Of a stretch of DNA of 10,539 nt, positions 1-9,516 are shown piece after piece. The DNA comes from Desulfobacteraceae bacterium (GTDB lineage: Bacteria; Desulfobacterota; Desulfobacteria; Desulfobacterales; Desulfobacteraceae). Made by a program: the position numbers and the translations under genes. The stretch is from contig WFQS01000175.1 in assembly GCA_015486915.1 (NCBI GenBank), positions 1-10,539 of the forward strand, read 5' to 3'. Under the pieces are notes generated by a model, which was not told the origin of the DNA, searched no databases, and saw only the letters and a list, made by a program, of their open reading frames with translations. Position 1 is the stretch's first letter. Each line of letters begins with the position of its first letter.

Positions 1-72
1 AAAGAATCAAAGATTCTGACAAATATAGAAACTCTTACTCCGAAAGGAATTTTACAGGAGTTTCATATAAAA
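1..72 (+). repeat. Dispersed 72-nt repeat, copy R1
   Basis: This copy aligns without gaps to 5305-5376, with about 58 of 72 identities by eye. The first 23 bases and the last 18 bases are almost identical, and most differences fall in the middle. Each copy can form two hairpins. One is AGAATC/GATTCT with an AAA loop (3-8 with 12-17). The other is a wider GAAACTC/GAGTTTC stem (28-34 with 58-64). The repeat begins at the first base of the window, so it may extend further upstream; the other copy is directly preceded by another hairpin. Here it lies immediately before the hgcB-like gene. It carries no coding capacity. It may be a REP- or MITE-like element or a processed RNA structure. Confidence 0.8.
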
Positions 73-77
73 AAAAA

Positions 78-82
78 CAGGA
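78..82 (+). promoter_or_regulatory. Ribosome binding site for hgcB-like gene
   Basis: CAGGA ends 8 nt before the ATG at 91. This supports that start rather than any internal one. Confidence 0.6.
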
Positions 83-90
83 AAAATAAA

Positions 91-381
91 ATGAAAGATA
101 TGAGATACATAGATGACGTTACCACGCTTCAGCTTAATGAAGAATTGTGTATTGGATGCGGCCTCTGCATTGAGGTGTGTCCCCGGGGTGTACTTGAACT
201 TAAACGAGGCAAAGCTCATATTATTGACAAAAATGCATGCATGGAATGCGGAGCCTGTGTCAACAACTGCCCTGTGCATGCCGTTGAAGTTCATCCAGGT
301 GTTGGCTGAGCGTCCTATATTATCCAGGTATGGATAAAAGGCGAAGAAAATGCATCCTGCGGCAGCGGAGCCTGCTGCTGA
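91..381 (+). CDS. hgcB: HgcB-type dicluster ferredoxin, probable selenoprotein (TGA at 307-309 read as Sec)
   Basis: HgcB is a small cytoplasmic 2[4Fe-4S] ferredoxin that partners the corrinoid protein HgcA in mercury methylation. It is thought to reduce HgcA's corrinoid and hand over Hg(II). Two CxxCxxCxxxCP clusters are visible: Cys20/23/26/30 and Cys50/53/56/60. The second contains the HgcB signature CMECGAC. The first open stretch ends at codon 73 with TGA directly after GVG, where known HgcB proteins read GVGCA with the critical Cys73. Translation resumes in the same frame with Ala and continues to a TGA at 379-381. That tail has Cys90 and ends in the vicinal pair Cys95-Cys96, as HgcB does. 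Full length would be 96 residues, close to the roughly 95 usual for the family. A SECIS-like stem-loop follows the internal TGA. The alternative is a gene broken by a nonsense mutation, giving a 72-residue protein. The family call is strong; selenocysteine use is inferred. Confidence 0.85.
310..343 (+). promoter_or_regulatory. Putative bacterial SECIS element in hgcB
   Basis: Just after the TGA at 307-309, TTATCC (320-325) pairs with GGATAA (332-337) around the hexaloop AGGTAT. A lower stem pairs CCT (314-316) with AGG (339-341), and CG (311-312) with CG (342-343). The loop begins 16 nt after the TGA. From memory, the E. coli fdhF SECIS has loop AGGTCT 17 nt after its TGA, with the same C before and G after. 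This is the expected SelB-binding geometry. The fold was done by eye; no covariance search was run. Confidence 0.7.
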
Positions 382-423
382 AGCTACAGGCTTTCTTATC
401 AAATTAATTTCACTGGGCCAGAA

Positions 424-429
424 GGAGGA
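424..429 (+). promoter_or_regulatory. Ribosome binding site of the nitroreductase remnant
   Basis: A strong GGAGGA lies a few bases before the ATG at 434. It shows that this was once a properly initiated gene, probably translated from the same message as the hgcB-like gene 52 nt upstream. Confidence 0.6.
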
Positions 430-433
430 TAAA

Positions 434-772
434 ATGAATATAGTACTTGAAGCTCTTAATTTTAGACATGCCTGCAAAAAATTTGATCCTGAAAAAAAAA
501 TAAACAAAAATGATCTGGATTAAATTCTGCAGTGTGCGGTTTTATCACCCAGTTCATTTGGGATGGAAGCATGGAAATTCCTTGTTGTAGAATCGGACAG
601 GATTAAAAAAGCACTGCGGCCTGTTTGCTGGAATCAACCGCAGATAACCGATGCAAGTCATGTGGTGGTTATTCTTGCACGACCCGGCATTGTCAATTAT
701 GAAAATGATTATGTAAAAAATACATTTGACGTAAAAAACAGGCAGAAGTGGGCGTTGTGCAAAGGTCTGTGA
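434..772 (+). pseudogene. Nitroreductase-like FMN flavoprotein remnant, nonsense-interrupted and truncated
   Basis: Reading from the ATG at 434 gives an NfsB/nitroreductase-like N-terminus with RH at residues 11-12 and KKFD at 15-18. A TAA at 521-523 replaces codon 30, probably from GAA. The same frame continues with LSPSS (37-41), WKFLV (47-51) and TDASHVVV, all typical of the FMN-binding nitroreductase fold. The frame then ends at a TGA at 770-772 just after RQKWA, where family members continue with a helix and roughly half of the protein. About 112 codons remain of the usual 200 or so. The good ribosome binding site and position behind the hgcB-like gene suggest a former operon partner. 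The converging kinase gene begins only 7 bases after the remnant, so the missing half was probably lost by deletion. Residual expression of a 29-residue peptide is possible, but a working enzyme is not. Confidence 0.8.
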
Positions 773-779
773 TTGTCTT

Positions 780-3700
780 TTATTTATCAAGTAATTCGCG
801 AATCAATGACACTAATTCCTCGCTGTCTATGGGCTTTTGAATATATTGTTTAATTCCAAGTTCAAGGGCTTTATCTTTTGAAATTTTTTCATTATATCCT
901 GTACACAGAATAATGGGAATATCTTTTTTGATTTTTAGAATACCTGCTGAAAGTTTATCTCCGGTCATATGGGGCATGGTCATATCCGTAATCACAAGAT
1001 CAAATTCATCGGGAGACTTTTTAAATTCCTCAAAAGCTTCTGCTCCGTTTGAAAAACTTGTCACCTTATACCCGTAATCTTTTAGAAATTCTTCAATTGA
1101 GTCGAGTATACTTTTTTCATCATCAACAACCATGATTTTTTCCTGTCCGCCTTTTAATGGTTTTCTGCTGCCTGACGGGTGCATGGCAACGTCTTTCTTA
1201 TCCTCTACAGGTAAAAAAACATAAAATTCAGTGCCTTTACCCACGGTGCTGTAAGCCTTTATATATCCCTTATGGTCCTCAATAATTGCATAAACAAGAG
1301 CCAGTCCAAGCCCTGTACCTTCTCCTGCCTTTTTGGTGGAAAAATACGGGTCAAACATTTTCCCCATGGTCTCTTTATCCATGCCATGGCCTGTATCACT
1401 TACTTTAAGCCTTATATATTCCCCGGGTAAAATATTCATATCCGGTAAACTGTTGCGCTGAGAAATTTCAATATCATTTAATTCAACTTCCAGTTTTCCA
1501 CCCTTATCGCGCATTGCATGGTAAGCATTTGTACAGAGATTCATCACAACCTGATGGATCTGGGTAGGGTCTGCCATGACATTTTTATCAGAAAAAACAT
1601 TTTCCTTGATTTCTATTGTGGAAGGAATTGATGAGCGCAATAGTTTAAGGGCCTCTTTAACGACAATTGACACCTCAAGCAGTTGTTTTTCATGATCTGT
1701 CTGCCTTGTGAAAGTCAAAATCTGCTGAATCAAACTTGCTGCTCTTTTAGCACCCTTAAAAACCTGGCCAACATAAGACTTTGCCTTTACAGGATTATCA
1801 ATATTCATTTCAGCAAGTTGACAATATCCGAAAATACCGGATAAAATGTTGTTGAAATCATGGGCAATACCTCCTGAGAGAGTCCCGATCGCTTCCATTT
1901 TATGGGACTGGCGCAGTTCGGATTCAAATTTCTTCCTTTCCTGTTCCGCTCTTTTCCTTTCTGTAATATCAATTATCAGGGCACGAAATCCACAGGCACG
2001 ACCGTTCGGATCTTTCATTAAAGAAACCGAAGCCTCAACTGTAACCAAATCCCCTGATTTCCTGAAAGCAGGATATTCAAAGCTTTTTAAGGATTTTCCT
2101 GTCTTAAAGATAGCTCTATATTTTCTTTTTATCTCTTCAGATGTTTTATCATCAGTATAGGTTTTATAATTCATTCCAAACAGTTCATCCGGAGAATACC
2201 CGGTAATATCGCAGAGAGCTTCGTTAAAAAATGTAAGATTTCCTTTAAGATCAACTTCAACATATCCTATATTCCTGTTATCAAGGATAGTACGATACCT
2301 TTCTTCATTATCCCTTAACGCCTGTTCAGCCATCTTGAGTTCAGATATATCAATGGCCGTGCCAATGATAATCATTGGTTTGTTATCCTGATCAAATTTA
2401 ATAACCTTTGCCCTGTTATTGAGCCATCGCTGTTCACCATTTACAGTTATAATTGAAAATTCATCCTGGTAATAAGGCTTGTTCCCTTTAATAAATTCTT
2501 TAAAACGACGTCTGACTTTTTTAATATTGTTTGGATTTATAAGATTTAATATGTCTGTAACTTTTTCAAGATCCGCTCTTTCATAACCCGGCAGTTTAAA
2601 TTTGTCGGTATCGATCTTAAATTTTTCTGTTTTAAGATTGAATTCCCAGGTTATTGCAAGGCTTACCTCAAGGGCAAGGGAAAGTCTTTCTTCACTTCTT
2701 ACCAGATCATGCTGTATTTTTTTACGGTCTGTAATATCCCTTGCAACACTTAAAACAGCTTTTTTCCCCTTAAAAATAATTTTTTTTGCATGGCATTCAA
2801 CATAAACAAGGGTGCTGTTTTTTGTAAAAATTTCCGTTTCAAAAACAACGGGACCTCCTGTTCTGGAAATATCCTCAATTAAAGCTGCAATTTTGTTACA
2901 CTGTTTTTCAGGAATTATGTTGGTAAAAGTTGTGTTCTCAAACTCTTGTTTTGAAAATCCAAACTGGTCCAATGCTATCTGGTTTACTTCAAGGAATTTG
3001 CCTGAGAAATCATAGATAAATACAGGGTCTGCAACACCTTCAAACAATTGCTGATATCGTTTTAACTCTTCTGTTTTCTTAAGGTTATTAACCATAATGG
3101 ACAAAGATAACATTAACTGTCCAACCTCTATAACATTTGAAGAAATTCTTTTTCCGTCAGTATATGGCTTACCCTCGGCAATTTTAAGAGATAATTGAGA
3201 CAACTCGGAAAGTGGTCTGGCAAGCAGTCTGCTCAAAAATAATGATATGGTAATAGTCAGTATAAGAACAAACGCCAGGGAATAAAGCACAGGTCTTAAC
3301 ACTTTTATTTTTGCATTATTTAGTTTATTAAGTCCTGATAAATAAATCAGATCAGGAAATTCCCTGTTCACGACTACAGCAGCTTTTTCATTGTTTAATA
3401 CAATATAGGACAGGCCTTGTTTTTTGATTTTCTCCGTCAGAAGATTAAATCCTTTAACTATTTTTCCAGTTAAAATATTCCATGCCCTGCCATTATTAAT
3501 CTTAATTATGGAACTGGTTTTATGTTTACATACAGATTTCAACAGGGTCTCATCCTTGTTCAATATATAAATGGCATATGCCGTTCCTATACGATCTTTC
3601 TGCCTGAAAACAGGGTATGAAAGTGAATAAATAAAACCATATTTTCCAAATCTCACAAGTTTACCCGCGGCACTGGACGAAGTAAGAATTGCGCTAAGTT

Positions 3701-5250: not shown

Positions 5251-5265
5251 CATATATTCTGAATA

Positions 5266-5304
5266 ACTGCCATGAGGCAGATCTGAAGACCCTCAGACTG
5301 CCTC
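5266..5304. repeat. Hairpin element A, covarying with the hairpin at 9478-9516
   Basis: GAGGCAG (5274-5280) pairs with CTGCCTC (5298-5304). After a single bulged A, TCTGA (5282-5286) pairs with TCAGA (5293-5297), giving 12 base pairs around an AGACCC loop. An alternative small hairpin pairs CTGCC (5267-5271) with GGCAG (5276-5280). The 31-nt core has the same length as 9486-9516, with compensatory changes. It is directly joined to the 72-nt repeat at 5305. Confidence 0.7.
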
Positions 5305-5376
5305 AAAGAATCAAAGATTCTGACAAAATTTGAAACTCTAATAATTCAAGGCACTTTTCAGGAGTTTTATATAAAA
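5305..5376 (+). repeat. Dispersed 72-nt repeat, copy R2
   Basis: This is the gapless second copy of the repeat at 1-72. The hairpin AGAATC/GATTCT is fully conserved. The outer stem is kept as AAACTC/GAGTTT. It directly follows hairpin A with no spacer, so hairpin plus repeat may be one composite unit of about 110 nt. It lies in a gene-free region between two minus-strand genes. Confidence 0.8.
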
Positions 5377-5414
5377 TTGTCCAAATCCATGTCTGAATTT
5401 TTAAACCGGTATGA

Positions 5415-5432
5415 TAAGGATCGAAAATTTTA
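5415..5432. repeat. 18-nt exact direct repeat, copy 2
   Basis: Identical to 4089-4106. It ends on the first base of the long palindrome. Confidence 0.6.
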
Positions 5433-5565
5433 TAAGTTGAACGAAATTGCTTGTCTTCTTTTCCCATCTACTTCGTTGCATCAAAGGCCGAATACGTCGA
5501 GTATGCAACCTTTAATGCGCCTTGTACATGGGGTAAGAATTCTGCGCTATTTCTGTTCAACTTAT
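5432..5565. repeat. 134-nt long imperfect palindrome
   Basis: The outer arms ATAAGTTGAAC (5432-5442) and GTTCAACTTAT (5555-5565) are a perfect 11-bp inverted repeat. The pairing continues inward. GAAAT (5443-5447) pairs with ATTTC (5549-5553), past a bulged T. TTCTT (5456-5460) pairs with AAGAA (5535-5539), and CCCAT (5463-5467) with ATGGG (5528-5532). TAC (5469-5471) pairs with GTA (5524-5526), GCAT (5478-5481) with ATGC (5515-5518), and AAAGG (5483-5487) with CCTTT (5509-5513). A terminal ATAC/GTAT hairpin caps it. About 45 base pairs form in total. An open frame runs across it on the + strand but shows no protein character. It may be a MITE-like or REP-like element. No typical U-run terminator follows on either strand. 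Confidence 0.75.
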
Positions 5566-5599
5566 TTCATCTCCGATCCTAATCTCCTGTTATTATTAG

Positions 5600-6691
5600 T
5601 CAGCAAAGACGGCAACCCCGGTTAAGACACGCAGTACAGTTTAAGTGCAAATTTCTGCACACTCCGACTGAATAGGTACTCATACCACAGGACTGACAGA
5701 CCATGGGGTCAATCCGTTTGGTTACAGGGTTGTATGTCATGGTAATATCCCTTTTATCATGACCTGAAATAAGGGAGGCAAACACCTTAACACCGGGACT
5801 GATTATTGATAACACAGCAATGGGGGTAAAACTTATTTTTATGCTGTACTTATTCAACAGATCTTTTTTCTTAACTGTAAGTTCATCGGGGATCAGGGTA
5901 ATTTTAGACTGTCTTTCCTGAATCAGTTTATCTGAAAGTCCGGTCCTTAAAAGGCTTTCTTCCATCTCCTTTTTAAGTGCTCCATAGTACTTGTCAAGGC
6001 TTAATGAATCTCTTTTAAATCTGCGGTTCATACTTTGGATAAAATTCTCAAGCTCTCCCTCAACGGCTTCAGGGCCATAGATGCTGATAAGCTCATGAAT
6101 ACGTCTGATCTGACTTTCCGAATATTTCCGAATGTTTATTGTATCAAATTCCTGTTCAATGCCTAACATCATTTCCGACATATCGGGAATCACAGCTCCT
6201 GTGTCGATATTAAAGGAAAAATTAAAAAGTCCCTGTTTCTGTTCATCGCTCTGGGCAAGGATCATGCATGTGACAAGGGCGTAATTTGTGTAAACATTCC
6301 CTGTTCCGGTTATCTTAATTTTACTTTTATGAAATTCAAATTGTTCCCTGATAAGATTGGCAAAGCCCTGTGTTTTGATATAATTAAATTTTAGTTCACA
6401 CTGAAGAAAGGGCGGAGTTGATCCTGCCATGGATACAATTTTATCAAGTAGAGGGCTTTGGAACTGTATGGAATACAGCTTTTCACCACCAAAATTTTTT
6501 ACATTTTCCGTATCCTTTGAAAATGAAATATGTTCTTCAACATCAAGGGCCTCAGAGAGTTGTTCAGAAAGAAGTGCATCTGTCACACTGTTGTTTTCAG
6601 AGTCAATAACAGCGCCTTTACTATCTAAAAAGCGACGGGTAAATTTTATAAGATCAACGTTATTTTTTTCTATTGCATTATCAGAGTTCAT
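5600..6691 (-). CDS. Conserved-looking protein of unknown function with seven-cysteine C-terminus, partner of SNF2 helicase
   Basis: I do not recognise a named family. The frame opens at 6718, but the ATG at 6691 is preferred because GGAG lies six bases before it; the earlier ATG lacks a good site. That gives 363 residues and an 11-nt overlap with the helicase gene, implying translational coupling. Numbering from 6718, the middle (about 195-290) is helical and charged, with a KYYGALKKEMEES coiled-coil-like segment. A beta-rich stretch (about 290-335) then leads to the end: Cys341, 344, 354, 361, 364, 369 and 372. The CxxC pairs suggest zinc binding, probably two knuckles, and the protein ends on the last cysteine. 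There is no signal peptide or membrane segment, so it should be cytoplasmic. Context suggests it acts with the helicase on nucleic acid or nucleoprotein; this is inference. Confidence 0.75.
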   Translation of the reverse strand: MNSDNAIEKNNVDLIKFTRRFLDSKGAVIDSENNSVTDALLSEQLSEALDVEEHISFSKDTENVKNFGGEKLYSIQFQSPLLDKIVSMAGSTPPFLQCELKFNYIKTQGFANLIREQFEFHKSKIKITGTGNVYTNYALVTCMILAQSDEQKQGLFNFSFNIDTGAVIPDMSEMMLGIEQEFDTINIRKYSESQIRRIHELISIYGPEAVEGELENFIQSMNRRFKRDSLSLDKYYGALKKEMEESLLRTGLSDKLIQERQSKITLIPDELTVKKKDLLNKYSIKISFTPIAVLSIISPGVKVFASLISGHDKRDITMTYNPVTKRIDPMVCQSCGMSTYSVGVCRNLHLNCTACLNRGCRLC

Positions 6692-9122
6692 AGGCATCTC
6701 CAAAAAGTTTGTCGTCAAATTCCCGGGATTTATTGTACCCTGTTTTTGCTCTTTTCAATTTTGTTCCAAGGTTTGTAAAAGCCTTCTGGCGCTCCTGCCG
6801 GGTTTTTGAATTCATCCATATCTCATAAACCATGTCGCTGAACTCTTTTTCACCCCTGATCCGTCCAAGGATCATATCAATTTCACCAATTACCATTTCA
6901 AACATATTGATTTTGCGGTCCAGAATATCAAGTATATAGTCCTCAATGGAACCTGTTGCACAAAAATTAAATATTTGAACCTCTTTTTCCTGTCCTATCC
7001 TGTGGATTCTGCCTATTCGCTGCTCTATTTTCATGGGGTTCCACGGCAGGTCATAATTAACCATTCTTGAACAGAACTGAAGGTTTCTGCCCTCACCTCC
7101 TATTTCCGTTGTGATGAGCACCTGGGTTTGATTTTTAAAAGAATCAATGGCATGATCTTTCTGTCTGTTGGTCATTCCACCGTGAAAAAGGGAAAATGAA
7201 ATATTATTCCACTCTAAAAATTCTGCAAGATGTTCCACTGTACCTTTAAATTTAACAAATACAATTATTTTTTCTTTTTCAGACCGGACAAGTTTCAGCA
7301 GGGCAAGGTTCTTTGGCGTATCTAAGGTTGTCCTGCACAGATTTTTAACTGCTCTTATTTCTGCTTCATGTTCAAGAAGATATGTCTGTTTTCCAAGCAT
7401 TTTGTTTAAGGTTGATTCCACCGCCTTTGGCGAGGAACCAGCCTGGGCCAGCAGGTTGATAACAAGGATTCTTGACTTTGCCTGATTTTTTTCAGTAAGG
7501 GATATTATCAATGTTTCAAGTCTTTCATAAAATGCCTGCTCAGCCTTTGTCGGTTCAATACGTATTGTCTGAGCGAATCTTGGGGGAATGTTAATACCTG
7601 CCACAGCCCTTGTATTGCGGATCATCACCTGGGATAAAAGTTCTTTTAAAAGAGCCTGATTTCTCGGGTCGGTGGGGTCGCCCTTTTTCATGAACTTTTC
7701 CCTGAATGAAGTTGCTGTCTCAAGCTGACCCGGCTTCAGCAGCGTGATGAGATTGTATAATTCCATGAGGTTATTTTCCACAGGTGTTGCAGTTAGCAGC
7801 AGTATAAATCGTTTTTTCAGGGAATTTACAAGCTTCCAGTTTAGTGTTGTCCGATTTTTCAGGTGATGGGCTTCATCAACTATGATCATGTCGTATTTTC
7901 TATTTGTGATAAAATCAAAATTTTTTTTGGATTTGGCATAATTAATTGATGCAATTATAAAGGGCTTTTTCCAGAATTTTTCCGAACCTGATTTATATCC
8001 GGGATCATCCGTTGATGGAACATCCATGTCAAATTTTGATTTTATCTCTTCCTTCCACTGGCTGACAAGGGGAGTCGGAGTTAATATAAGGCATGTCTTT
8101 ACCATATTCCTTTTAATATATTCCGTCAGTACAATTAAAGCTTCAATTGTCTTGCCAAGGCCTACTTCATCGGATAAAAGAGCCCTTCCCCTGAATTGTT
8201 TTAAAACTTTTTTAGCTGTTTCCTCCTGGTACCAGAACGATTTTACAGATTTGAGCCCTGGAAGGCAGATCAGTGTTTCAAAGGATTCGGTGAAACGAAT
8301 TTCATGACTCATAAGGGCAAGTTCATACATTTCGGGATTTGCAGGCAGAGGGTCTGAAAAAGCTTTTAAAAAGGGTTCAACATCTATTTTATAAGTTATG
8401 GGAACCTCGGCAATCATTGCAGGGTGCGCTGATTCAGTGGTTTTTCCCGATTTTTTTTGTATGTTTGACTCTGCCTTTGAATCCGGCTGCGAACTCTGCT
8501 TTGAATTGATCTTTGATATCAGGCCTGTTTTCCCATTATTTTTCCGGCCTGATTTTTTTTGCCTGCCTGGTGTATTCTTTTGTCTGTCGAATGTCACAGG
8601 CCCGGAATATCGGCCGGTTTTTCTTAAAATTTCTTTTTTTTCGTTTGCTTGAAGAATATAAATACAATATTCTCTGATAGCTTCCATGGTCTTTTTTGTC
8701 TTTTTTTTGTCTTTTATTTTAACCCGGGCGAAATTTTCAAGCAGATTATCAACATTTTGAAGACATTCTTTATATTTTTTAGAGTTATAAAGAAGTGATA
8801 TCCTCCGTATTTTCATCTCATCGCTTAATTTCCCCATTTTATTTAGAGATGAAAAGGCGTATAATTCCATATCTCTATTGCCGCTGGCAAACCCGATATC
8901 AATCATCAGCTGAAAAATTTCTTCTTCATCCGGCAGGATCTTGGCTGCTTTTTTAATGGCTTTAACAGCATCATCCTTACTGCCTGTATCAAAGAAAAAA
9001 CATGCCTCTGAAAAATAAGACCAGCCGTTTTCACGGTGATTTCGTTGAGCCCTGGCATTTTTTATCTTTTTTATCTTTGCTTTACGTTTTTGCTTTTTTC
9101 TGTCAGTTTTTGATTTGCCCAC
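6681..9122 (-). CDS. RapA-like SNF2/DEAH-family ATPase with basic, TPR-like N-terminus
   Basis: This 813-residue superfamily 2 ATPase starts at GTG (9122); no ATG occurs in frame until residue 72, deep in the N-domain. A very basic tip (1-30) is followed by a TPR-like helical region (about 33-160) and a Lys/Ser/Gln-rich linker (about 170-235). The ATPase core begins near residue 295. Motif I is DEVGLGKT (318-325), motif II DEAH (416-419) and motif III TATPVEN (444-450). The C-lobe has FHGGM (646-650), TEIGGEG (672-678) and the arginine-finger motif QRIGRIHRIGQ (701-711). All catalytic residues look intact. Such enzymes translocate on double-stranded DNA and remodel protein-DNA complexes; RapA recycles RNA polymerase, and related ATPases occur in phage-defence islands. 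It overlaps the cysteine-rich protein gene by 11 nt. AGGG lies 12 nt before the start, a long spacing. The exact role is not known. Confidence 0.92.
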   Translation of the reverse strand: MGKSKTDRKKQKRKAKIKKIKNARAQRNHRENGWSYFSEACFFFDTGSKDDAVKAIKKAAKILPDEEEIFQLMIDIGFASGNRDMELYAFSSLNKMGKLSDEMKIRRISLLYNSKKYKECLQNVDNLLENFARVKIKDKKKTKKTMEAIREYCIYILQANEKKEILRKTGRYSGPVTFDRQKNTPGRQKKSGRKNNGKTGLISKINSKQSSQPDSKAESNIQKKSGKTTESAHPAMIAEVPITYKIDVEPFLKAFSDPLPANPEMYELALMSHEIRFTESFETLICLPGLKSVKSFWYQEETAKKVLKQFRGRALLSDEVGLGKTIEALIVLTEYIKRNMVKTCLILTPTPLVSQWKEEIKSKFDMDVPSTDDPGYKSGSEKFWKKPFIIASINYAKSKKNFDFITNRKYDMIIVDEAHHLKNRTTLNWKLVNSLKKRFILLLTATPVENNLMELYNLITLLKPGQLETATSFREKFMKKGDPTDPRNQALLKELLSQVMIRNTRAVAGINIPPRFAQTIRIEPTKAEQAFYERLETLIISLTEKNQAKSRILVINLLAQAGSSPKAVESTLNKMLGKQTYLLEHEAEIRAVKNLCRTTLDTPKNLALLKLVRSEKEKIIVFVKFKGTVEHLAEFLEWNNISFSLFHGGMTNRQKDHAIDSFKNQTQVLITTEIGGEGRNLQFCSRMVNYDLPWNPMKIEQRIGRIHRIGQEKEVQIFNFCATGSIEDYILDILDRKINMFEMVIGEIDMILGRIRGEKEFSDMVYEIWMNSKTRQERQKAFTNLGTKLKRAKTGYNKSREFDDKLFGDAYEL

Positions 9123-9420: not shown

Positions 9421-9477
9421 TGTACTGCACTGCAAAGTTTAAGATTTTATATTCAGACCCTGAATATGTGCAGTATA
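9421..9477. other. Nested stem structure upstream of the response regulator
   Basis: TGTACTGCAC (9421-9430) pairs with GTGCAGTATA (9468-9477) over ten positions with one G-T wobble. It encloses an 18-nt unpaired strand and a perfect 8-bp hairpin, ATATTCAG (9449-9456) with CTGAATAT (9460-9467) around ACC. Hairpin B follows directly, so the tandem looks like a folded RNA. It ends about 130 nt before the regulator start. I do not recognise it as a GEMM c-di-GMP riboswitch. It could be an sRNA, a leader structure or a repeat element. Confidence 0.45.
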
Positions 9478-9516
9478 ACGGCCATGAGGCCACTTTGATG
9501 GTCCTTAAACGGCTTT
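9478..9516. repeat. Hairpin element B, homologous to hairpin at 5266-5304
   Basis: GAGGCC (9486-9491) pairs with GGCTTT (9511-9516) using two G-T wobbles. TTTGA (9494-9498) pairs with TTAAA (9505-9509) around the loop TGGTCC. The 31-nt core has the same length as 5274-5304, with 19 of 31 identities. The flanking ATAAC and GCCATGAGGC are shared. The C-G/T-A and A-T/C-G exchanges keep the pairing, which argues that the structure is selected. Confidence 0.65.

What the first reader, a model, noticed from the sequence alone, without database searches (positions are those of the whole stretch)
91..381. Selenocysteine-containing HgcB: in-frame TGA exactly at the critical Cys73
The sequence shows two ferredoxin clusters and the HgcB signature CMECGAC. 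A TGA follows at codon 73 directly after GVG, and 23 further codons in the same frame end in Cys-Cys. From knowledge of HgcB, residue 73 is the conserved cysteine needed for methylation, and a C-terminal Cys pair is normal. Substituting Sec for that Cys would place a selenol, with very high affinity for mercury, at the metal-handling site. Automatic annotation would truncate the protein to 72 residues and hide both the active residue and the tail. I do not recall a described selenoprotein HgcB, but cannot check.
Basis: partly seen in the sequence, partly recalled or inferred. Interest (0 to 1): 0.95.

Follow-up and report, generated by a model that had tools for sequence, protein, structure and literature searches.

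The report
Selenocysteine form of mercury-methylation ferredoxin HgcB
This bacterial DNA carries a gene for HgcB, a small iron-sulphur protein of the mercury-methylating pair HgcAB, in which a UGA codon followed by a strictly conserved RNA hairpin stands where other HgcB genes have an essential cysteine, so the protein likely carries selenocysteine there; selenoprotein HgcB is already in print, but it is the only form found in the 55 sampled genomes of one bacterial family that have the gene.

Summary
Confirmed and, as a class, already described. Window 91-381 encodes a 96-residue HgcB (NF040864, 122 bits, cut-off 99) with TGA at codon 73, where Cys-type HgcBs have the Cys whose mutation abolishes mercury methylation. 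A 2026 review lists HgcB with motif GVGU, citing Haft & Gwadz 2023 (not held here). New here is the strength and spread of the evidence. Of 86 genomes of one family, 55 have HgcB over cut-off and codon 73 is TGA in all 55. Just after the TGA lies a 7-bp hairpin with a GG loop; its wobble bases are frozen in Sec genes (0 changes at three Ile codons on an HgcA tree, against 2-19 at 46 other codons) but change 9-15 times in Cys genes, as a working SECIS predicts. TGA still ends the same gene. On the HgcA tree the Sec genes form one group plus one isolated outsider. Not shown: Sec itself, mercury methylation, or hgcA beside this copy, because the window starts 90 bases upstream inside a dispersed repeat and its genome is not held. 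The nearest of the 86 genomes has selA but no selB, tRNA-Sec, hgcA or hgcB over cut-off.

The parts
91..381 (+). hgcB, 96 residues with predicted Sec at 73, including the TGA stop
   Evidence: NF040864 122.3 bits, profile 1-93 of 93
148..183 (+). First CxxCxxCxxxCP cluster motif (C20-P31)
   Evidence: conserved in alignment A1
238..273 (+). Second CxxCxxCxxxCP cluster motif (C50-P61), with CMECGAC
   Evidence: conserved in alignment A1
307..309 (+). TGA codon 73, predicted selenocysteine, at the position of Cys73
   Evidence: TGA at the same codon in 23 of 80 scanned loci and in 55 of 55 over-cut-off HgcB genes of the sampled family (codons read)
311..343 (+). SECIS-like hairpin: lower stem 311-316/339-343, upper stem 320-326/331-337, loop GGUA 327-330 (GG 18-19 nt after the TGA)
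   Evidence: (310-345): -11.7 kcal/mol, z -3.10, 0 of 200 shuffles as good; the longer stretch 301-360 gave z -0.37. Wobble bases frozen in Sec genes
373..378 (+). C-terminal Cys-Cys pair (C95, C96)
   Evidence: 57 of 62 distinct Sec genes end in CC
379..381 (+). TGA read as the stop of the same gene
   Evidence: TGA is the terminal stop in 42 of 62 distinct Sec hgcB genes, including this one
1..76 (+). Copy of a dispersed repeat, cut by the start of the window
   Evidence: 43 matches of window 1-780 in G115, all within query bases 1-116; further copy at 5305-5376 (81%)

Best explanation
The window encodes HgcB, the ferredoxin partner of the mercury-methylating protein HgcA, with an in-frame UGA at the essential Cys73 position that is likely decoded as selenocysteine by means of the hairpin directly after it. 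Shown: the reading frame, the family match, the shared TGA across species, and the wobble-frozen hairpin. Inferred: SelB with tRNA-Sec binds the GG-loop hairpin and inserts Sec; the 96-residue protein docks on HgcA; its two [4Fe-4S] clusters feed electrons to the corrinoid; and the selenolate at 73 takes the place of the thiolate that receives or hands on Hg(II) or methylmercury together with the C-terminal Cys pair. Selenium would then be needed for a full-length, active HgcB in this clade.
For: NF040864 at 122.3 bits against 100.1 for the truncation. TGA at codon 73 in 55 of 55 over-cut-off HgcB genes among 86 genomes of one family (each codon read). In 62 distinct Sec sequences codons 77, 78 and 82 are ATT, ATC and ATA in 62 of 62 and codon 79 is CAG in 61 of 62, while 58 distinct Cys sequences vary there. 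On an HgcA tree these third bases show 0, 0, 0 and 1 changes in 54 Sec rows, against 2-19 at 46 other codons; in 50 Cys rows codons 77, 78 and 82 show 10, 15 and 9. Hairpin z -3.10. TGA remains the terminal stop in 42 of 62. HgcA is over cut-off in 53 of the 55 HgcB genomes and in two pieces in a 54th. SelB is over cut-off in 76 of 86 genomes, 48 of the 55 with HgcB. tRNA-Sec is over cut-off in 20 of 23 genomes whose HgcB has TGA. The nearest of the 86 genomes has SelA. Cys73Ala abolished methylation in Desulfovibrio ND132 (PMC7305189, passages). HgcB GVGU is in a review's table of known and predicted selenoproteins (PMC13188914, passages).
Against: The window's genome is not held, so its Sec machinery and hgcA are untested. 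The nearest of the 86 genomes, G115 (94% DNA identity over 3.3 kb), shows no SelB, tRNA-Sec, hgcA or hgcB over cut-off; its completeness is not told. Seven of the 55 HgcB genomes show no SelB over cut-off. tRNA-Sec does not discriminate: 24 of 27 Cys-type genomes have it too. No Rfam family matches the hairpin. Folded with more flanking sequence the hairpin is not unusual (z -0.37). The stem never varies, so there is no covariation. One genome (G103) has Sec-HgcB and no HgcA match.
Confidence: 0.88

Rival explanations
1. Sec is inserted, but this HgcB does not serve mercury methylation here: it is an orphan ferredoxin or serves an unknown native reaction.
For: The 90 bases before hgcB encode no HgcA end (read by eye). 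A repeat sits there. G115 lacks an hgcA match. G103 has Sec-HgcB without an HgcA match. Downstream is a gene fragment with a stop inside.
Against: The window simply starts there, and hgcA-hgcB gaps of 108 and 124 bases occur in Sec-type relatives L023 and L020. Of 55 family genomes with HgcB, 54 also have HgcA: 53 over cut-off and G027 as two pieces below it.
Confidence: 0.2
2. TGA is a real stop: a 72-residue protein is made and the tail is a relic.
For: Databases carry 72-residue forms.
Against: The tail and its Cys pair are kept in dozens of species, and the hairpin wobble bases are frozen. A relic would drift.
Confidence: 0.03
3. TGA is read as Cys, Trp or another residue by a changed code or a suppressor.
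For: The frame is open.
Against: TGA ends this gene and two other genes of the window, and ends 42 of 62 Sec hgcB genes. A hairpin just after the codon is what Sec decoding needs.
Confidence: 0.02
4. The TGA is a sequencing or assembly error in place of TGT or TGC.
For: It is one base away.
Against: The same codon is TGA in 23 other assemblies of the first scan and in 55 of 55 of the family (some genomes are in both sets).
Confidence: 0.01

Closest known systems
Selenoprotein HgcB with motif GVGU (NF040864, example WP_250697400.1; listed in PMC13188914, citing Haft & Gwadz 2023)
   Same: Same family and same GVGU motif, so the same Sec position
   Different: Another sequence from an unnamed source. 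The listed example's sequence and host were not compared, and the 2023 paper was not held.
Cys-type HgcB of Desulfovibrio desulfuricans ND132 (Cys73, Cys94, Cys95; PMC7305189 passages)
   Same: Two [4Fe-4S] motifs, conserved residue 73, C-terminal Cys pair
   Different: Sec predicted instead of Cys at 73, with a hairpin in the mRNA
Selenoprotein HgcA (motif CU, NF040863; PMC13188914 passages)
   Same: The partner protein is also listed as a selenoprotein in some organisms
   Different: In the sampled family, HgcA matches over cut-off have no stop inside, so there only HgcB has the recoded codon.

Membership tests
HgcB (NF040864) | Score over the curated cut-off over the full length | tested here: met
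   122.3 bits, cut-off 99, profile 1-93 of 93
HgcB (NF040864) | Two CxxCxxCxxxCP motifs | tested here: met
HgcB (NF040864) | Conserved Cys73, or Sec in its place | tested here: met
   TGA at codon 73, aligned with Cys73
HgcB (NF040864) | C-terminal Cys pair | tested here: met
   C95-C96
HgcB (NF040864) | hgcA next to it | not testable with these tools
   The window starts 90 bases upstream inside a repeat; no genome is held
Bacterial selenoprotein | In-frame UGA aligned with Cys in homologues, kept across species | tested here: met
Bacterial selenoprotein | SECIS hairpin with G in the apical loop just after the UGA | tested here: met
   Judged by shape (recalled description) and wobble freeze; no library model matched
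Bacterial selenoprotein | selA, selB, selC and selD in the same genome | not testable with these tools
   Own genome not held. Nearest of the 86 genomes: SelA yes, SelB and tRNA-Sec not over cut-off, SelD not tested
Bacterial selenoprotein | Sec found in the protein | not testable with these tools
   Needs mass spectrometry

The most novel reading that the evidence does not exclude
In a whole clade of marine sulphate reducers (Desulfobacteraceae and close neighbours) the mercury-handling Cys73 of HgcB was replaced by selenocysteine at the base and has never reverted, so that methylmercury formation there is selenium-dependent; the same switch, with the same hairpin, arose or was transferred at least once more outside the clade.
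Probability: 0.5. Interest if true: 0.72.

Novelty: new member of a known kind. Interest (0 to 1): 0.48.

Why it matters
HgcAB makes the methylmercury that enters food webs. If its key thiol is a selenol throughout a family of sediment sulphate reducers, selenium supply could control methylation there. Annotation that cuts these proteins at 72 residues would also miss the functional residue and the tail. The clade-wide Sec/Cys contrast makes the question of what residue 73 does directly testable.

Tried and rejected
A check of the window's own assembly was impossible. A viral-contig scan found no relative, and a plasmid DNA search of window 1-900 found no match. Rfam gave no match at gathering score for the window and two weak matches at 290-380, both far under their gathering scores. 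tRNA-Sec presence was tried as a discriminator and does not discriminate (50 of the 80 loci were given). The five hits besides G023 that show a TGA in the phylum sample (G625, G445, G612, G673, G662) were fetched and have Cys at 73; their TGA lies further downstream. G287 is likewise Cys at 73. The hgcA motif search missed or cut seven Sec loci and eight Cys loci. A first tblastn script to recover them returned nothing for any of them, most likely because of a wrong option of mine; the repeat recovered all seven Sec loci and four of the eight Cys loci. The first HgcA tree needed one Sec/Cys change (54 Sec and 50 Cys rows). With the recovered rows it needs two, because L170 falls among Cys rows (61 Sec and 54 Cys rows); the short HgcB tree also needs two. 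The third-base counts were made on the first tree and not repeated on the larger one. No structure was predicted, as the published HgcAB model covers residue 73.

Full report
What is there. The window (10,539 bases) starts 90 bases before an ATG at 91. The frame runs through two CxxCxxCxxxCP motifs and GVG to a TGA at 307-309 (codon 73), continues for 23 sense codons to Cys-Cys, and stops at a second TGA, 379-381. The 96-residue reading matches NCBIfam NF040864 (mercury methylation ferredoxin HgcB) with 122.3 bits over the whole profile; the 72-residue truncation scores 100.1, cut-off 99. Homologues with Cys align straight through the position (the window's protein with 21 of the 120 proteins listed).

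Prior art. A 2026 review (PMC13188914, passages only) has a table of known and predicted selenoproteins. It lists HgcB, NF040864, motif GVGU, and HgcA, motif CU; for HgcB the reference is Haft & Gwadz 2023. I saw a heading 'Predicted with high confidence' some rows above, but not all rows between. The 2023 paper is not held and I did not read it. PMC11588087 (passages) also says that some hgcA and hgcB homologues may be selenoproteins. So the kind is known. My searches were HgcB+selenoprotein, selenocysteine/mercury methylation/HgcAB, the 2023 title, hgcB+selenocysteine, Desulfobacula+selenoprotein, mercury methylation+selenoprotein, vacuolatum+mercury methylation and hgcB+UGA. In what I saw of their results I met no statement that the Sec form is the rule for a family. 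Most listed papers were seen only as listings, and the 2023 paper might say so. PMC8318568 (passages) reports 34 putative selenoproteins in a Desulfobacula-like genome; its main text does not hold 'Hgc' or 'mercury', and its supplement was not seen. PMC12013277 and PMC11227280 (passages) only cite the 2023 paper as far as the searched terms show.

Spread. Codon 73 is TGA in 23 of 80 and Cys in 57 of 80 (54, three read by eye). The record titles of the 23 are Desulfobacula, Desulfotignum, Desulfamplus, Desulfobacterium, Desulfocicer and less specific names (Desulfobacteraceae, Desulfobacterales, Deltaproteobacteria, an uncultured proteobacterium). In 86 genomes of the family of G023 (the genome of L023, Desulfocicer vacuolatum; that this family is Desulfobacteraceae, and that its members are sulphate reducers, is recalled), 55 have HgcB over cut-off and all 55 carry a TGA inside; codon 73 was read as TGA in each. 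In 389 genomes drawn from the order, 164 have a match at E <= 1e-24; the printed list of matches is cut and mixes open frames with TGA rows. From that list I fetched eight TGA hits outside the family: seven in six genomes (G337 twice, G295, G131, G196, G253, G161) are Sec-type, and G287 is Cys-type. In 395 genomes drawn from the phylum, 115 have a match at E <= 1e-26. Besides G023 only five show a TGA, and all five have Cys at 73.

The hairpin. Bases 320-337, UUAUCCA-GGUA-UGGAUAA, form a 7-bp stem on a short lower stem, with GG 18-19 nt after the UGA (310-345: -11.7 kcal/mol, z -3.10, 0 of 200 shuffles as good; the longer stretch 301-360 gave z -0.37). Across 62 distinct Sec sequences (first hit per locus, duplicates collapsed, window included) codons 77, 78, 79 and 82 are ATT in 62, ATC in 62, CAG in 61 and ATA in 62. 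In 58 distinct Cys sequences the same places vary in codon and residue. Ile codons elsewhere in hgcA and hgcB of the Sec loci are ATT 43%, ATC 36% and ATA 21%. Because relatedness could mimic this, I counted third-base changes on a tree of the partner protein HgcA: 0, 0 and 0 at codons 77, 78 and 82 and 1 at 79, against 2-19 at 46 other codons between 20 and 87 (those whose commonest residue is in at least 70% of the Sec rows and is not Met or Trp), in 54 Sec rows. In the 50 Cys rows codons 77, 78 and 82 show 10, 15 and 9 changes, counted over the 41, 43 and 25 rows with Ile there. Nothing in the protein explains wobble bases frozen in the Sec genes only; a working SECIS does. The stem pairs do not vary, so there is no covariation to cite. 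One gene (L141) has CAA, which alters the first G of the loop, and two (L098/L122 and L166) have Gly for Val80.

TGA is not reassigned. It ends 42 of 62 Sec hgcB genes, including this one, and two other genes in the window.

Machinery. tRNA-Sec is over cut-off in 44 of 50 genomes, 20 of 23 with TGA-HgcB and 24 of 27 with Cys-HgcB (50 of the 80 loci were given), so it permits but does not single out the Sec form. SelB is over cut-off in 76 of 86 family genomes, 48 of the 55 with HgcB. The window's genome is not held. The nearest of the 86 by one neighbouring protein is G115: 92% identity over the 372-residue protein and 94.4% DNA identity over window 5417-8686. It has SelA at 598.9 bits, but no SelB, tRNA-Sec, HgcA or HgcB over cut-off. 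Its completeness is not told, so this is a caution, not a refutation.

The partner gene. HgcA is over cut-off in 54 of 86 family genomes, with no stop inside those matches. Of the 55 with HgcB, 53 are among these, G027 has HgcA in two pieces below cut-off, and G103 shows no HgcA at E <= 1e-20; tblastn found no remnant around its hgcB. G090 has HgcA but no HgcB over cut-off. In the window the 90 bases before hgcB encode no HgcA end. Bases 1-76 are a copy of a repeat that matches G115 in 43 places; such repeats often break assemblies, but whether the window's start is a contig end is not told. Most Sec-type relatives have hgcA within about 10-35 bases of hgcB; gaps of 108 (L023) and 124 bases (L020) also occur. 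So nothing can be concluded for this copy.

Evolution. On the HgcA tree of 104 rows, Sec and Cys need one change (SH-aLRT 100). After adding rows that the motif search missed (115 rows) they need two: L170 (G253) sits among Cys rows although its hgcB has the TGA and the same hairpin. The short HgcB tree also needs two. So there is one large group plus one isolated switch or transfer. Both trees are quick searches. The window lacks hgcA and was placed only on the poorly resolved HgcB tree, nearest to Sec rows.

Mechanism. Reported by others: Cys73Ala abolished methylation in vivo, and in a model Cys73 lies at the start of the C-terminal helix, within reach of the Cys pair (PMC7305189, passages). 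Inferred here: the selenolate replaces that thiolate in receiving or releasing Hg(II) or methylmercury. Whether this speeds transfer, protects the site or serves another native reaction is untested.

Noticed in passing
window 1-76, 5252-5376, 9464-9513 (partial): Copies of a dispersed repeat with a GAAACTC/GAGTTTC inverted pair (by eye). Window 1-780 matches G115 in 43 places, all within query bases 1-116; in L161 a copy lies, by eye, between the end of one gene and the start of the next. No Rfam family.
   Followed up: partly
window 5413-5584: A second repeat of about 170 bases with 30-nt inverted ends, 80% complementary. In L155 it is found once inside the long match and once alone at 94.7% identity, like a small mobile element.
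   Followed up: partly
window 434-772: Frame downstream of hgcB with an in-frame TAA at 521-523, which looks like a decayed nitroreductase (name from recall; no Pfam hit for the 563-772 piece). Weak DNA matches of 67-68% in G077 and G112.
   Followed up: partly
window 5600-6718 (-): 372-residue protein with a Cys-rich C-terminus and no Pfam or NCBIfam match, next to a SNF2-type helicase. Relatives at E <= 1e-30 in 19 of 86 family genomes.
   Followed up: partly
L123 (G103:C81): Sec-type hgcB in a genome with no HgcA match: a possible orphan HgcB.
   Followed up: partly
L170 (G253:C6): Sec-type HgcB whose HgcA falls among Cys-type rows, with the same hairpin: a second switch or a transferred 3' end.
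   Followed up: partly
P0001: Top-ranked metagenome HgcB homologue with Leu at position 73 (GVGL), perhaps a one-base change from TGA or an error.
   Followed up: no
L181 (G662:C363): HgcB with Cys73 and an in-frame TGA in its tail, after which the same frame goes on to Cys-Cys: possibly a Sec in the tail, or chance.
   Followed up: no
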